A stretch of 64,000 nucleotides of DNA from Shewanella yunxiaonensis (lineage in GTDB: Bacteria > Pseudomonadota > Gammaproteobacteria > Enterobacterales > Shewanellaceae): assembly GCF_018223345.1 (NCBI RefSeq), contig NZ_CP073587.1, forward strand, positions 3,098,001 to 3,162,000. Reading direction: 5' to 3'. Below are positions 19,334 to 26,807 of the stretch, piece after piece. Made by a program: the position numbers and the translations under genes. The number at the start of each line of letters is the position of its first letter. Positions within the stretch are counted from its first letter, which is position 1. Below the pieces are notes generated by a model. The model made no database searches. It was not told the DNA's origin and worked only from the letters and a program-made list of their open reading frames with translations.

Positions 19334-19712
19334 GGCAAACTGCGTTTGCGAAAGTCGTGGAACTGCTCGTTCCACACCAGAGCCAAAGGGCGATGCTCGT
19401 CCCTCGCCCTTTGGAAACCCGACGACGCCCCACGGCGCTGACCACTCCTCGGCTTTATGCTGAAAATGGCTACACTCAGGATTCACGGCTTTCTATCCTT
19501 GAAAGCCATCCCAGCTCGGCTATCCCGGCCTCGCGCTCACAAACTTGAGACGTTGTCTCGTTCGCCCATGCTCAACCTTCGCGCTTCGACATCTGCCGGG
19601 CAGGAGGCCCAAATGCCGTGAAGGACATGGATATCCGAAAGCGGCCATGCCTCAGCTACGCCATTTTTAGCAACATCCTCGGCAGCGCCGAAGGAGAAAT
19701 AGTGTTGCCTGC
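19334..19712 (+). repeat. Dispersed repeat, copy A
   Basis: About 380 bases that recur in inverted orientation at 23530-23910. The best-conserved block runs from ATTCACGGCTTTCTATCC to CGGCCATG and is almost identical between copies, while the outer parts have drifted. Short antisense or sense frames in it (for example around 19229-19548) are not maintained between copies, so I treat it as non-coding. The remaining bases of 19206-19872 show no gene. Confidence 0.8.
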
Positions 19713-19872
19713 TAACACCTAGATATTAGGTTTCAAGGTAGGTGCTTGGGGAAAGATTAATTGCTAAGTGGCATCAATATTCGTTTATAACGGTAGTGAG
19801 TTTTAGTCTTCCATTCCGAGGCAAAGGCGATTGAAGTGGCTAAAAATATTGATGCAACTACATAAACGATAT

Positions 19873-20529
19873 TTATATTGACTCTGAGTACTTTATTAGA
19901 GTTTGTTTCAAATCCTCACATTTTTTTATTGTTTTATGAGCTAAAGGTACATTTATTTTTCTATTCACAGATTCAAAATCTTCACCAGTTGCCAAATCAT
20001 AAATTTCACCAACTAGATTATTTATTATTTCCTTATCGCCACCATTTTCATCTGATATTCTATCCAACATGCTATTAGAGCTATTTTTAATAATATCAAA
20101 CTTCGTCTTTATAATTATTTCCAATTCTGTCTTTCTGTCTCTACTTGAGTTTTTTCTTATTGTATAATTACTTGACCAATACTCAATCACTGCATTTTCA
20201 AAAACTTCTAAATTTTTTAAAGTTAACACTGCAAAATGAGACAATCTATTATATTTTCTTATTTTTTTCCAAAAATAATAATTAAGAAAATATGCAATCA
20301 ATGCAGCACTTACTGAACTAATTAGACCTGATGTAATAGATAGTGGATATGAGCCTGACGGTATTGTATTTGAACTAGCTTGCTCTAATTTTTGAACTCT
20401 ATAGTTCAATAATTCCAAGCTATTTTTGTAACCATCCATAACTTTTACATTCCCTAAATCACAGGAATTACATTTAAAAATGACAGCATGTATATTATGA
20501 TTAAATTTATTAATACTATCATTTTTCAT
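19873..20529 (-). CDS. Unknown one-TM protein, third gene of the GHKL/STAS-like unit
   Basis: 218 residues, very AT-rich. The N-terminus has a CNSCDLG pair of cysteines, then a short coiled-coil-like stretch (LELLNYRVQKLEQ), then one strong membrane segment at about 64-90 (LSITSGLISSVSAALIAYFLNYYF) followed by KKIRK. The remaining 125 residues are a charged, mainly helical cytoplasmic tail. No known family recognised. It starts 7 bases after the stop of the STAS-like gene, so the two are very likely co-transcribed. It could be the membrane partner or output of the module, but this is only inference. Confidence 0.7.
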   Translation of the reverse strand: MKNDSINKFNHNIHAVIFKCNSCDLGNVKVMDGYKNSLELLNYRVQKLEQASSNTIPSGSYPLSITSGLISSVSAALIAYFLNYYFWKKIRKYNRLSHFAVLTLKNLEVFENAVIEYWSSNYTIRKNSSRDRKTELEIIIKTKFDIIKNSSNSMLDRISDENGGDKEIINNLVGEIYDLATGEDFESVNRKINVPLAHKTIKKCEDLKQTLIKYSESI

Positions 20530-20535
20530 CGTTTT

Positions 20536-20958
20536 CTAATCCTTTAGAATATCAGCTACAAATTTTTTATCTATAATTGATTTAAATACACCTTGTTTAA
20601 TAGCAAGATCTTTTGTTGATACATATTTTTCTGAATTATAAAGAGCTTGTTTAATATACTGCTCTATCTTATTTTGGTAAAACTTATAATCATCCGTCTT
20701 ACAAGTTGTAACTATTTTGCTTAAAACCTCATCACTAGTAAAATATCCATGTTTTATTAGTCCACCGAAGGCCTCAACTAAGAATGATGAACCATAACCA
20801 TCAACATTTTTTTCAATATCTATTTCAATTTTATCTTTTTTTTCTAACAATGGTTTAAGCACCTCTTCGCGGAACTCTTCTCCACTACCATCACCATCGG
20901 TATAATACCTACCAGAAGGATCACTTGAAAAATTCATTCCAATCAATATCTTATCCAT
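20536..20958 (-). CDS. STAS-like domain protein (DUF4325 type)
   Basis: 140 residues. The signature is FREEVLKPLLEKKDKIEIDI, then GYGSSFLVEAFGGLIKHGYF, matching the STAS-like DUF4325 pattern (an Asp-rich strand followed by GSSFL-EAFGG). Such proteins resemble anti-sigma-factor antagonists and are often next to GHKL ATPases. It overlaps the upstream ATPase gene by 8 bases and is followed by the one-TM gene after 7 bases, so the three form a unit. Base composition is much more AT-rich than the nif genes, pointing to horizontal origin. Its biological role is not known. Confidence 0.78.
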   Translation of the reverse strand: MDKILIGMNFSSDPSGRYYTDGDGSGEEFREEVLKPLLEKKDKIEIDIEKNVDGYGSSFLVEAFGGLIKHGYFTSDEVLSKIVTTCKTDDYKFYQNKIEQYIKQALYNSEKYVSTKDLAIKQGVFKSIIDKKFVADILKD

Positions 20959-21757
20959 TGCTCGGCTCTTTATTATCTAACGTTACACTCCATATGATAA
21001 GTGTACCACACAATGGAAGATCAAAGCTCGCGGTCTTTACATGCTCCTTATTGTTATCTAATGTAAATTTATACAGGCCCTTGTAACTTAAAATGGAAAT
21101 ATATCCTTGTCCTCTTTGTTTTATAAACTCTATAAGATCTTGTAACCCTTTTCCTCGATCATTTTTTTCTGTACTTGTTCTATCAATACTCATTGCTGCT
21201 TCTAATAGTACTTTATCAGACATTTTTTCGATAACATTAACACCTGTTTTAGTTAAAAAATTAAGCACTCTTTCATATATCTTTGACGCGGGAAGTGATT
21301 TTGGAATTCCCACTCCTTGATCATAAAAAGCAATTTTCATTTCTCTAGAACTATTATTAAACGACCCAGTTAAGTACCATGATTTATCTATAAATACATT
21401 TCCTTCTGGATAAGCATGATGAGTTACATTTGTAACAGCCTCTGAAAGTCCACTATGTAAAAATGTCCATTTCAAAATATCATCACCCACTAATGAAAAT
21501 ATTTCTCTTTTTAGTTCAATTTTTTTCGATTTTGCATCATCAGGATCAGAGCAAAGCCCCCTCATATATCTAACAAAATTGAGATCTGTTGTGTATTTTT
21601 CTATTTTATTTAAATCTAAAGGTTTGTTATCAAACAAATCAAAAAAGCCCAACTGACATAACTGCTTTAAAATTTGATCATTCCATGTTTCTGTAAATGG
21701 TATTAGTCTCCTATTGATTATTGAATCAGGGTAAGAGCATGAATGCTTAAATATCAC
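20951..21757 (-). CDS. C-terminal fragment of the GHKL ATPase, possibly still translated
   Basis: An open frame of 268 codons starts with GTG at 21757 inside the IS end. It contains the full ATP-binding set: N-box HSGLSEAVTNVTHHAYP (E106, N110), G1 box DQGVGIP (146-152) and G2 box RGKGL (201-205). The first 11 residues come from the IS. The GTG overlaps the transposase stop (GGTGATATTTAA) in another frame, so translation could be coupled to the transposase. Whether the fragment is made or works alone cannot be told from sequence. Confidence 0.6.
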   Translation of the reverse strand: MIFKHSCSYPDSIINRRLIPFTETWNDQILKQLCQLGFFDLFDNKPLDLNKIEKYTTDLNFVRYMRGLCSDPDDAKSKKIELKREIFSLVGDDILKWTFLHSGLSEAVTNVTHHAYPEGNVFIDKSWYLTGSFNNSSREMKIAFYDQGVGIPKSLPASKIYERVLNFLTKTGVNVIEKMSDKVLLEAAMSIDRTSTEKNDRGKGLQDLIEFIKQRGQGYISILSYKGLYKFTLDNNKEHVKTASFDLPLCGTLIIWSVTLDNKEPSNG

Positions 21758-22975
21758 CCAACGTCTTTAAACCTGCTGTTAGTACCTGCTCCAGATAATC
21801 AGTGCTACCGTGTGCACGCTTCTGTTTGCGTGGAATACTGATTTTTCGAGTTGTTTCCGCTTGGAGCATATTCAACGCTATCTTCCTTGCTCCGGACAAT
21901 ACCTCCGCCGCATTGCCTCTATATATTTGGCATTGGTCTTCCTTCATCGACGCGTCCAGCACCCAATGCAGGCTATTTTCAACCGCCCAGTGGCTGCGTA
22001 CCGCATTGGCAAAACGGGCCTTGCTCAGTTTGGCTGAACTGATGTAATAACGGTACTCAAGGGATTCATTACCGCTTTTCGTTCGACGATAGCTCAGCGC
22101 AACACCGATACTTTTAAGCCCTTTCCATTCTGGGAAGGCGTCGGCTAAGCTGCCTGCGTCCATAACACAATAGGCTCTGGCTTCGTTACGTCCGTGCTGC
22201 TTCTCTAAGCAAAGCACTTCTTCGTTAATCTCGCTGGAAAGAACTTTACGAACGGCATCGTGCAGCGCTTTTTGATTACCTTTTACGGCAAGCAAATAAT
22301 CACCACCGCGCTCAATAATTTGTTCAGCGATATCTGTCTGACATCCCATAGCATCTATCGATATCAGACAACCTTTAATATCCAACAGCGCCAGTAATGC
22401 GGGAATGGCGGTAATTTCATTGGACTTACTTTCGGTTTTAACTTGCCCAAGCACGACATTATTTTCTGTTGCGAAGGCATTTACCATGTGGATGGCTGAC
22501 AGTCTATTCTGGCGATTATATGAACCACATAGCCGTTTACCATCTATCGCAATAAGCTGACCTTCAGATAACTCCACAACAGACTTCATCCAGTCGATAA
22601 AGCAATGCTGAAACTGATCGCTATCTATTCTCGATACGACTCGAGCAATAGTGTCATGAACAGGTAACCCATTCTTAAACAGGCCTTTTTCGATAAACCA
22701 GTTAAAGTGCAGATCGCCAAAATCTTCGATATCTTCCCAGCCTTGTGCTCCAGCTATTGAGGCACAAACCACGAGGAATAAAATATCAGTGAATAGGTGC
22801 TCGACTTTGGCTGACTGACGAGGGTCTTCTAAGGTACTAAAGAACTGTTGAAATGCACCGGAGTTCATAGGGCTCTCCACAAAAGAGAGTATAAGATCAC
22901 AGCCAGTATGAACCGTCCAGCCCTTTGGGAGAATGTCAGTCTAATAGCTCAAATTATGTTCGTGATCTTGCCCTG
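21727..22975. mobile_element. ISAs1-family insertion sequence, complete
   Basis: 1249 bp. The ends are imperfect inverted repeats beginning CAGGGTAAGAGCATGAA (left) and CAGGGCAAGATCACGAA (right, minus strand). It is flanked by the exact 10-bp direct repeat ATTATTGAAT (21717-21726 and 22976-22985), the expected size for the family. It carries one transposase gene on the minus strand. The intact duplication suggests a fairly recent single insertion. Confidence 0.92.
21747..22868 (-). CDS. ISAs1-family transposase
   Basis: 373 residues from the ATG at 22868 (MNSGAFQQFFSTLEDPRQ), with GGAGAG upstream; a GTG 12 bases earlier is also possible. Family features are DPRQSAKVEHLFTDILFLVV at the N-terminus, the first DDE region IAIDGKRLCGS, then ISIDAMGCQTDIAEQI, and a late RSHWAVENSLHWVLDASMKEDQ segment carrying the catalytic Glu. 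It is full length with no frameshift, so it is probably active. Confidence 0.93.
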   Translation of the reverse strand: MNSGAFQQFFSTLEDPRQSAKVEHLFTDILFLVVCASIAGAQGWEDIEDFGDLHFNWFIEKGLFKNGLPVHDTIARVVSRIDSDQFQHCFIDWMKSVVELSEGQLIAIDGKRLCGSYNRQNRLSAIHMVNAFATENNVVLGQVKTESKSNEITAIPALLALLDIKGCLISIDAMGCQTDIAEQIIERGGDYLLAVKGNQKALHDAVRKVLSSEINEEVLCLEKQHGRNEARAYCVMDAGSLADAFPEWKGLKSIGVALSYRRTKSGNESLEYRYYISSAKLSKARFANAVRSHWAVENSLHWVLDASMKEDQCQIYRGNAAEVLSGARKIALNMLQAETTRKISIPRKQKRAHGSTDYLEQVLTAGLKTLGDI

Positions 22976-23529
22976 ATTATTGAATTCCATTTTGAAATTT
23001 CAGCTGTTAGAACTAAAGCAGCTGATGTAGATATTTTCTTTAAGTTCTCAAATCTTATGTGCCTCAACTTATATGCTGATTTAGGGATCTTTCTATTCTT
23101 AAAATCTTCAAATAACTTAGTACACTCACGAATTGCATTTAAAGTTACAACTGTATTATGGTAATTTCTATTTAAATCCATACTTTCTGGTAGAAATATC
23201 TCAATATCATTCTTCTTATTTCGTTTATTAAGTACTAATCCTTTTTTAATATATGCATCAATCATATTATTATGATTTTTATAGCTCTTTATTTCTTTTT
23301 TAACTACTTTGAATTTTAATGTCTTTTTTATAGTATTTTTTCGATTACGTAATTCCCTAATTACATCTCGTTCTCGTTCTTTTATGGTTATTTTTCTCAT
23401 AAAAAATCCCTTTTTCTTTTACATTAATTATTAAGCTTTCAATTTTCAATATTTTTTATCGATAATTGTAAAAAAGTAAGATAGGGTTCAGCCACCAATT
23501 TAATTCCAGCTAACACATTGAATTTTCAG

Positions 23530-23910
23530 GTAACACCAATTCCCCTTTGGTGCTGCCGCAAGCGTTGCTGAAAATGGCGTAGCCGAGACATGGCCGCTTT
23601 CGGACATCCATGTCCTTCACGGCATTTGGGCCTCCTGCCCAGCAGATGTCGAGGCGCGAAGGTTGAGCATGGGCGAACGAGACAACGTCTCAAGTTTGTG
23701 AGCGCGAGGCCGGGATAGCCGAGCTGGGATGGCTTTCAAGGATAGAAAGCCGTGAATCCTGAGCATAGCCAGATTTTCAGCATAAGCTGGCGGAGTTGTC
23801 AGCGCCGTGGGGCGTCCTCGGGGTTCCAAGGGGCGGGGGACGAGCATCGCCCCTTGGCTCAGGTATGGAGTGAGCAACTCCACGACTTTTCGCAAACGCA
23901 GTTTGCACAT
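23530..23910 (-). repeat. Dispersed repeat, copy B (inverted relative to copy A)
   Basis: It matches 19334-19712 on the opposite strand over about 380 bases. Just outside it, 23511-23545 (ACACATTGAATTTTCAGG) also recurs at about 24460, and 23920-23990 (GCCTATTTAGTCGTAGTG) recurs near 27057. Copies A and B bracket the GHKL/STAS-like unit and its IS. The 23401-23529 stretch before it is AT-rich upstream sequence of the ATPase gene. Confidence 0.8.
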
Positions 23911-23999
23911 AGGCGCAGCCTATTTAGTCGTAGTGTGAGCACGAAAGCTCACGACTTTGGCAACCGCAGGTTGCATAGGCTGCGCAAGCCTATCCATTA

Positions 24000-24308
24000 T
24001 CAGTCATCTGGCCCTAAAAGGGTAAACATCAAATTTTTCCGCATATCCTTAAGCACTACCCCTTTTTTCAGCATCGCTGTGCTTAACCGCTTTTGCCACT
24101 TCAATAGATCTGGCGCTGCCGCCGCTAACACTGGTTCATTCTCAAACTGAAAATACAACAGCAACGAACCGGGAAATAACTGGTACTCAACGGTAAACCA
24201 ACATTGCACCATGCCGGGGATTTCCGCACGCGCTTGTGCTTCAAGGGCATCCGCAACGGTCTGCACAATCGTTTGTTGTTTTTGTTGTACGTTAGAGAGC
24301 TTTTTCAT
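24000..24308 (-). CDS. Hypothetical protein, 102 residues
   Basis: MKKLSNVQQKQQTIVQ, then a compact mixed alpha/beta sequence (GMVQCWFTVEYQLFPGSLLLYFQFEN, then APDLLKWQKRLSTAMLKKGVVLKDMRKNL). No signal peptide or membrane segment. Composition is close to that of the core genome, unlike the AT-rich neighbours, so it may be an original resident gene around which repeats accumulated. The repeat family runs right up to its stop codon. I do not recognise the family and no operon partner is seen. Confidence 0.65.
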   Translation of the reverse strand: MKKLSNVQQKQQTIVQTVADALEAQARAEIPGMVQCWFTVEYQLFPGSLLLYFQFENEPVLAAAAPDLLKWQKRLSTAMLKKGVVLKDMRKNLMFTLLGPDD

Positions 24309-25748: not shown

Positions 25749-26807
25749 GGCTTTGTTTCCTAAATCGATCCAGCGAAAAAAACTCCCTATGATTGTTTAA
25801 TTGTTAAACTACATAGTGAGTTTTGGGCATGCCTAGCCCTGTGAGTTTGTTCAACGCCTTTATCATCGCGTAAGTTTCTCCTACCTGAGCGTTATAATTT
25901 CGCAGGCTTAATCTGCCACCAAGTAGTTGCTTAATCCTGTACATGGCAGTTTCTGAGATTGACCGACGATGGTAACCATACCGTTTTTTCCACTGTTTAT
26001 TTGAACCATGAAGCTGTTGCCAACTGACCGCTAAGTTACGCGGATGACCTTGTTCCCAGAGCGCGGCACCTTCCCTCGGTGGAATGAGTACCAAAGCCCG
26101 TTTTCTACGAACGGCATCGTGACAGGCTCTTGTGTCGTAAGCACCATCACCTGAGATATTGCGGATTTTGCGATGGGTTTGCTTGAGCAAATTCGGCATA
26201 ACTTCAGCGTCAGTGACACCGGATAAACTCAGTTCCGCAGCAATAATTTCATGGCTATGTGTATCGACGGCAATATGCAGTTTACGCCATACACGGCGCT
26301 TGCCATCTGTGCCATGTTTCTTCACTTTCCACTCACCTTCGCCATAAACCTTCAAGCCTGTCGAGTCGATAGCCAAGTGCTCAATCGTGCCACGCGTCTT
26401 GGTTTTAAAAGCAATCTTGACGGTTTTCGCGCGTTTGCTGATGCAAGTGTAGTGTGGGCATGAAAGCGGAATATCTGCTAGTTTAAAAACAGAGTTGATA
26501 AAGCCTTGTAACGCTCGCAGTGGCATAGAGAAAACACGTTTAACCATCAGCGCGGTGGTAATAGCTAAGTCGCTAAATACGTGTGGGCGACCTTTCCTTG
26601 GTTGCTCGGCCTTAGCTTTCCACTGGGCGATAGCGTCCTCATCAATCCAGGAGGTAAGTGAGCCACGATTGATCAGGGCTTGATTGTATTGCTTCCAGTT
26701 GGTTGTTTTATATCGAGGTTTTGGCACGATTGATGGGGGAGTTGATAGGCTATGCCGATCAGATCAGCCTCTATCGTTTTAGTTCAACCGATTTAGGAAA
26801 CAAAGCC
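25749..26807. mobile_element. IS5-family insertion sequence, complete
   Basis: 1059 bp bounded by a perfect 19-bp inverted repeat GGCTTTGTTTCCTAAATCG (25749-25767 and 26789-26807). TCAT flanks both sides (25745-25748 and 26808-26811), consistent with a 4-bp target duplication. It carries one intact transposase gene on the minus strand. Confidence 0.93.
25804..26727 (-). CDS. IS5-family transposase (DDE type)
   Basis: 307 residues. Landmarks are NRGSLTSWIDEDAIAQW near the N-terminus, LAIDSTGLKVYGEGEWK (first catalytic Asp), ISGDGAYDTRACHDAV (second Asp), and YHRRSISETAMYRIKQLLGGRL with the catalytic Glu. This is full length for the IS903-like group, with no frameshift. Confidence 0.94.
   Translation of the reverse strand: MPKPRYKTTNWKQYNQALINRGSLTSWIDEDAIAQWKAKAEQPRKGRPHVFSDLAITTALMVKRVFSMPLRALQGFINSVFKLADIPLSCPHYTCISKRAKTVKIAFKTKTRGTIEHLAIDSTGLKVYGEGEWKVKKHGTDGKRRVWRKLHIAVDTHSHEIIAAELSLSGVTDAEVMPNLLKQTHRKIRNISGDGAYDTRACHDAVRRKRALVLIPPREGAALWEQGHPRNLAVSWQQLHGSNKQWKKRYGYHRRSISETAMYRIKQLLGGRLSLRNYNAQVGETYAMIKALNKLTGLGMPKTHYVV

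What the first reader, a model, noticed from the sequence alone, without database searches (positions are those of the whole stretch)
20951..23400. GHKL ATPase gene cleanly split by an ISAs1-family element; excision restores a 396-residue frame
Seen: the IS occupies 21727-22975 with CAGGG ends and an exact 10-bp duplication ATTATTGAAT on both sides. Joining 22976-23400 to 20951-21726 gives ...AEISKWNSII-NRRLIPF... in one frame. The two parts would otherwise be annotated as two unrelated hypothetical proteins. Inference: the accessory unit was intact until a recent insertion, and may have been inactivated.
Basis: seen in the sequence. Interest (0 to 1): 0.72.

Follow-up and report, generated by a model that had tools for sequence, protein, structure and literature searches.

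The report
Jumping gene broke a defence-like kinase
A recently inserted jumping gene has cut in two the kinase gene of a foreign three-gene cassette that looks like a membrane version of a newly published bacterial anti-phage switch.

Summary
A 1,249-bp ISAs1-family element (21727-22975) with an exact 10-bp target duplication splits one gene; dropping one duplicate gives an open 396-codon frame. Uninterrupted relatives run straight across the junction: Shewanella decolorationis (52%), Alteromonas (53%) and a viral contig (53%). The element is recent: four genomic copies differ by 0 or 1 base, each with a 10-bp duplication.

The split gene is more than a generic ATPase. It has a STAS-like N-domain and a GHKL domain whose closest solved folds are the STAS-protein kinases SpoIIAB and RsbW. 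It heads a conserved, AT-rich three-gene unit: kinase, small STAS-like DUF4325 protein with an invariant serine, and a one-helix membrane protein. Of 69 viral-contig loci found with the kinase, 66 have DUF4325 next and 64 a third gene. The unit lies in a variable spot beside nifH where relatives carry a divergent version of the same unit, or HipA/FRG genes.

The plan matches VapKSC (EMBO J 2026), an anti-phage kinase/STAS-antitoxin/PIN-toxin operon, but a membrane protein replaces the PIN toxin. Inferred: the kinase frees or activates the membrane effector, and the insertion locks the unit off. Function is untested.

The parts
22986..23400 (-). 5' part of the split kinase gene (codons 1-138 plus one base): N-terminal region and STAS-like domain up to the end of its second helix
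20951..21726 (-). 3' part of the split kinase gene: rest of the STAS-like domain and the whole GHKL kinase domain
21727..22975 (-). ISAs1-family insertion sequence, 1,249 bp, same orientation as the gene it splits
21747..22880 (-). ISAs1 transposase, 377 aa
21717..21726 (.). target duplication ATTATTGAAT, one copy
22976..22985 (.). target duplication ATTATTGAAT, other copy
20951..21757 (-). residual 268-aa ORF for the GHKL part, GTG start inside the IS, overlapping the transposase stop by 11 nt
22954..23400 (-). residual 148-aa ORF for the N-terminal part, running a few codons into the IS
20536..20958 (-). DUF4325 STAS-like protein, 140 aa, intact; invariant Ser58 is the candidate phosphorylation site
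19873..20529 (-). third gene, 218 aa, intact: one membrane helix and a helical bundle; candidate effector
19335..19711 (+). flanking repeat arm (90% to the other arm), of a repeat family found elsewhere in the genome
23527..23906 (-). flanking repeat arm, inverted with respect to the first

Best explanation
A horizontally acquired three-gene unit (STAS-GHKL kinase, DUF4325 STAS-like substrate, one-helix membrane protein) settled in a cargo spot beside nifH. An ISAs1-family element then transposed into the kinase gene, at the end of helix 2 of the STAS-like domain, recently and without decay of the other two genes. Shown: the insertion, the single ancestral frame, the conserved unit, and homology of the kinase and of DUF4325 to the first two parts of a kinase/DUF4325/PIN operon. 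Inferred: the intact kinase senses a signal of infection or DNA damage (CapK does so with ssDNA in its STAS-GHKL groove), phosphorylates the invariant serine of DUF4325, and so frees or activates the membrane protein, which stops growth of the infected cell. The insertion breaks the sensing domain away from the kinase domain and leaves substrate and effector bound, so the unit is locked off.
For: Insertion and frame. Continuity in relatives. Unit: of 69 viral loci found by the kinase profile, 66 have DUF4325 and 64 a third ORF directly downstream, 56 of these with a predicted membrane helix; of 16 genome loci, 15 have both, and 14 of the 15 third ORFs have a membrane helix. Kinase lineage: best solved folds of the GHKL domain model are SpoIIAB (Z 13.1, 133 aligned, rmsd 2.5) and RsbW (Z 10.2); the profile's best PDB hit is SpoIIAB, E 6e-4. 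Substrate: Ser invariant in 22 of 22 aligned DUF4325 proteins. Bridge: L146 holds HATPase protein / DUF4325 (6.8e-14) / PIN (7.1e-9) in that order; its kinase aligns with ours over 234 columns at E 2.7e-7. Published VapKSC: conserved phosphosite serine in VapS, PIN toxin freed by a phosphomimic, about 2-log protection against phage Bas42 (PMC13373217 section 13). Location: nearest genes in viral loci are often repressors and integrases; in phage AS1 one gene lies between the unit and a Cro/CI gene.
Against: No function has been tested. No PADLOC model matches any member tried, apart from one weak hit at E 0.021. The STAS assignment of the kinase N-domain is weak: STAS or STAS_2 matches in at most 5 of 24 members, no PDB hit, and its profile does not align with DUF4325. 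The third protein has no close solved fold (no match at E 0.001 or better), so 'effector' is inferred from its position. The GHKL part keeps an open frame, so a partly active kinase is possible.
Confidence: 0.6

Rival explanations
1. The unit is not silenced: the transposase and the GHKL part are transcribed in one direction, and ribosomes ending at the transposase stop restart at the overlapping GTG, making an unregulated kinase fragment without its N-terminal domain.
For: Same orientation and an 11-nt overlap of transposase stop and GTG; the whole GHKL domain is retained with its ATP-binding motifs; the DUF4325 and third genes are intact.
Against: No evident ribosome-binding site before that GTG (read by eye); by the same model an unregulated kinase would release the effector and harm the cell.
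Confidence: 0.15
2. The unit is a regulator of prophage or host physiology rather than a defence system: the kinase/DUF4325 pair controls the membrane protein in lysogeny control, stress or envelope signalling, without growth arrest.
For: Neighbours in viral loci include repressors and integrases and, in phage AS1, a Cro/CI gene; no PADLOC model matches; SpoIIAB and RsbW, the nearest solved folds, are regulators.
Against: The cargo spot beside nifH holds FRG and HipA-type genes in a close relative and a divergent copy of the unit in another; the related kinase/DUF4325/PIN plan is anti-phage in print.
Confidence: 0.25
3. The third protein is only a membrane anchor for the kinase/DUF4325 complex, and the output is elsewhere in the genome.
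For: One membrane helix, no enzyme fold recognised, low conservation.
Against: It sits at the same place in the operon as the PIN toxin of VapKSC-like operons.
Confidence: 0.2

Closest known systems
VapKSC (Chambers et al., EMBO J 2026, PMC13373217; abstract and sections 7, 12, 13, 14 and 18 read)
   Same: Three-gene order: STAS-GHKL kinase, small STAS protein with a conserved Ser/Thr, then a third protein. A kinase/DUF4325/PIN operon found here (L146) ties DUF4325 to this plan.
   Different: The third gene is a one-helix membrane protein with a helical bundle, not a PIN nuclease; the kinase has an extra N-terminal region of about 60 residues; here the kinase gene is broken by an IS.
CapK + CapS (same paper)
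   Same: STAS-GHKL kinase next to a STAS substrate with a conserved serine.
   Different: CapS carries a winged HTH and represses transcription; the DUF4325 protein here shows no HTH in Pfam, and the pair is followed by one membrane protein gene, not by an immune operon.
SpoIIAB/SpoIIAA and RsbW/RsbV (anti-sigma factor kinases and antagonists)
   Same: GHKL fold and a STAS-like partner with an invariant serine at the corresponding place (correspondence recalled).
   Different: No sigma factor is involved as far as the sequence shows; the kinase has an extra N-terminal domain, and a membrane protein follows.
PHROGs phrog_3364 and phrog_5816 (unknown function)
   Same: Kinase and DUF4325 proteins of the unit match them.
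   Different: Those families carry no function or operon description; phrog_5816 is longer (441 positions) and matched only at its end.
ISAs1-family insertion sequences
   Same: Transposase family, terminal repeats and 10-bp duplications.
   Different: Nothing unusual seen.

Membership tests
ISAs1 family | transposase matches the ISAs1 model | tested here: met
   NF033564 406.5 bits against a cut-off of 70
ISAs1 family | short inverted ends and a target duplication of constant length | tested here: met
   14 of 17 end positions match; exact 10-bp duplication at 4 of 4 copies
VapKSC | kinase with STAS and GHKL domains | tested here: met
   GHKL: SpoIIAB/RsbW fold. STAS part only weakly supported: at most 5 of 24 members. 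Kinase of a kinase/DUF4325/PIN operon aligns at E 2.7e-7
VapKSC | small STAS protein with an invariant Ser/Thr | tested here: met
   DUF4325, Ser in 22 of 22
VapKSC | third gene encodes a VapC-like PIN nuclease | tested here: not met
   no PIN match in Pfam at E up to 1; model is all helical with a membrane helix
VapKSC | ssDNA activation, phosphorylation, phage protection | not testable with these tools
   needs experiments
CapKS | winged HTH on the STAS substrate | tested here: not met
   only DUF4325 found in the 140-aa protein in Pfam at E up to 1
PADLOC-listed defence systems | match to a system model | tested here: not met
   no match for 4 window ORFs or for 3 proteins of the G253 unit; of 10 proteins of other members, one weak hit at E 0.021

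The most novel reading that the evidence does not exclude
The STAS-GHKL kinase plus DUF4325 pair is a modular alarm that plugs into different killers: where VapKSC frees a PIN nuclease, this prophage-borne branch frees a membrane-anchored effector, a second, membrane-acting class of kinase-triggered anti-phage system.
Probability: 0.45. Interest if true: 0.72.

Novelty: new variant of a known kind. Interest (0 to 1): 0.52.

Why it matters
The insertion itself is ordinary. What it disrupts is not: a conserved three-gene unit on many prophages with no named function, whose first two parts can now be tied by homology to a published anti-phage kinase/antitoxin plan. If the membrane protein is the effector, a known alarm has a second kind of killer, and the prediction is directly testable with one serine mutation.

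Tried and rejected
Two-gene reading: rejected, since relatives cross the junction. PADLOC membership: no useful match. A viral-contig scan with the window protein alone found no relative; the 10-sequence alignment did. Profile link between the kinase N-domain and DUF4325: none. No PDB sequence hit for the N-domain, and for DUF4325 none better than E 0.28. Third protein against PDB: best E 0.023, to a designed helical bundle, not informative. In one search no STAS fold was listed for the N-domain, which those rows hardly cover. Whether precise excision occurs could not be tested: no reads, and one genome per species. Literature: no paper describing this membrane variant turned up in searches for DUF4325, STAS-like with GHKL and ATPase, anti-phage with GHKL, STAS-like domain with phage, VapKSC, GHKL kinase with STAS domain and CapK/CapS/STAS/ssDNA; I went by the listings, and the library is open-access only. 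The Francisella phage KIRK paper (PMC7924643) lists in a row, after a CI repressor, a hypothetical protein, a DUF4325 protein and a TM protein; I saw one table passage. Papers PMC13092281, PMC9519451 and PMC12137116 were searched for terms only.

Full report
WHAT IS THERE. The IS occupies 21727-22975 and is flanked by ATTATTGAAT on both sides. Its ends match at 14 of 17 positions, and its 377-aa transposase is an ISAs1-family member (NF033564, E 7.1e-122). Dropping one copy of the duplication joins 23400-22986 to 21726-20951 on the minus strand into 1,191 nt, 396 codons and a stop. The genome (one contig, 3.81 Mb) has four copies of the element at 0 or 1 difference in 1,249, each with an exact 10-bp duplication, so transposition is recent. 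The label 'same genus' for G314, and the equal contig length of G314:C76 and Shewanella decolorationis S12 NZ_AXZL01000076.1, place the window in the genus Shewanella; I did not identify the species.

ONE GENE, NOT TWO. In S. decolorationis S12 a match covers residues 2-389 of 396 at 53% with no stop inside. Pairwise, the joined protein is 52% identical to the S12 frame, 53% to Alteromonas L116, 53% to viral contig L048, 51% to L117 and 41% to Shewanella corallii L130, all continuous at the junction. All 9 other sequences of A1 are continuous there too. The junction falls at L116 residue 147, in the helix 133-149 of the predicted model, that is, inside the N-terminal domain; the GHKL domain (about 196-397 of L116) is left whole. 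The ATP-binding motifs (E..TN..HAYP, DxGxGIP, RGKGL) are intact in the split gene (that these are the GHKL boxes is general knowledge).

WHAT THE PROTEIN IS. Pfam sees only weak HATPase matches below cut-off. The profile's best PDB match is the anti-sigma factor kinase SpoIIAB (E 6.4e-4). The model of the Alteromonas relative (pLDDT 84.6, pTM 0.83) has as its best solved folds SpoIIAB (Z 13.1, 133 aligned, rmsd 2.5) and RsbW (Z 10.2, 115 aligned, rmsd 2.3); a Leptospira response regulator also scores 10.2, and topoisomerase and Hsp90 ATPases come at about 9 and below. The N-domain looks STAS-like by its order of strands and helices; in Pfam, STAS_2 matches 3 and STAS 2 of 24 members, a weak result, but the kinase-like neighbour of another DUF4325 gene (L140) matches STAS_2 at 1.8e-6.

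THE UNIT. Downstream lie a 140-aa DUF4325 protein (E 1e-13) and a 218-aa protein with a predicted membrane helix and a helical bundle (model pLDDT 83.7). Their frames are open and they align along their length with relatives. Of 69 viral loci fetched by the kinase profile, 69 have a kinase ORF, 66 DUF4325 and 64 a third ORF of 90 aa or more, 56 of these with a membrane segment by a simple hydropathy threshold; some of the misses (L055, L065, L112) end with the locus. The 69 fall into 48 clusters at 80% kinase identity. Of 16 genome loci, 15 have both partners and L129 has neither. In the genus, DUF4325 occurs in 14 of 129 genomes, at 15 places; 10 of the 15 hold the three-gene unit by my scan, L034 and L039 are single fused ORFs, and L032, L042 and L043 did not pass the scan. 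In the phylum, DUF4325 occurs in 29 of 398 sampled genomes; at least 7 of the 29 loci scanned hold a kinase/DUF4325/membrane-protein unit, others have different architectures (printout cut).

LOCATION. The unit has 28.5% G+C against 51.5% for nifHDK and 48.3% for the window. It is bounded by inverted repeats of about 377 nt (90%) of a family with 14 matches, most of them partial, in the genome. Of 129 genus genomes 5 match nifH DNA, one of these only over 29 bases. In the three others besides the window, the stretch between nifH and a conserved 102-aa ORF (or, in G316, the methyltransferase ORF beyond it) holds different cargo: G253 a divergent kinase/DUF4325/membrane unit (its kinase is 19% identical to the reference protein of A1); G316, 89.9% identical in the nif flank, an FRG protein (PADLOC PDC-S15, E 7e-54) and HipA-type genes with copies of the same repeats at the borders; G304 a transposase with the same two Pfam domains as ISAs1 and a coiled-coil protein. 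So the same kind of unit is found in two divergent forms at one cargo spot. In viral loci, among 150 neighbour ORFs scanned, 12 match phrog_4 repressors and 11 phrog_1 integrases; no background set was scanned.

HOW IT PROBABLY WORKS. CapK, a HTH-STAS-GHKL kinase, is activated by ssDNA and phosphorylates a serine of CapS; VapK, VapS and the PIN toxin VapC form an anti-phage operon in which a phosphomimic of VapS S48 releases VapC (PMC13373217, sections 12-14 read). Locus L146 has a HATPase protein, a DUF4325 protein (6.8e-14) and a PIN protein (7.1e-9) in that order; its kinase aligns with our family over 234 columns (E 2.7e-7), its DUF4325 with ours (E 2.9e-4). Thus a VapKSC-like operon and our unit share kinase and substrate and differ in the third gene. 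I did not have the published Vap sequences, so calling L146 VapKSC-like rests on architecture. The inferred model: the kinase phosphorylates the invariant DUF4325 serine (22 of 22) and so releases the membrane protein. Losing the kinase would leave the pair locked, which would explain why the insertion is tolerated. The S. decolorationis draft has an in-frame stop in its third gene and a suspected missing base at the kinase start (sequencing error not excluded).

LIMITS. No experiment supports activity; the effector role of the third protein, sensing of ssDNA and the anti-phage role are inferred. Expression of a kinase fragment from the GTG in the IS (11-nt overlap with the transposase stop) cannot be excluded.

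Noticed in passing
L004 948-1553 (G000:C1 near 2406783): Another copy of the same IS also splits an ORF: joining the flanks gives a 201-aa frame, so this element has broken more than one gene in this genome.
   Followed up: partly
L115 7612-8097: The third gene of the unit in S. decolorationis S12 has an in-frame stop with recognisable sequence continuing in the same frame; possible independent inactivation of a different gene of the unit.
   Followed up: partly
window 19335-24308; L136, L137, L138: A variable cargo spot beside nifH, bounded in two genomes by one repeat family, holds toxin-antitoxin-like or defence-like genes in related nif-bearing genomes.
   Followed up: partly
L034 415-1725, L039 415-1728: Single ORFs of about 437 aa that carry a DUF4325 match, perhaps the fused architecture of phrog_5816.
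   Followed up: no
L168 4567-6493 (Marinobacter phage AS1): Three hypothetical genes AS1_41 to AS1_39 look like the same unit (kinase and DUF4325 matched), one gene away from a Cro/CI regulator.
   Followed up: partly
window 25804-26727: A second, different transposase-like ORF close to the cargo spot (IS5-like by eye, not searched).
   Followed up: no
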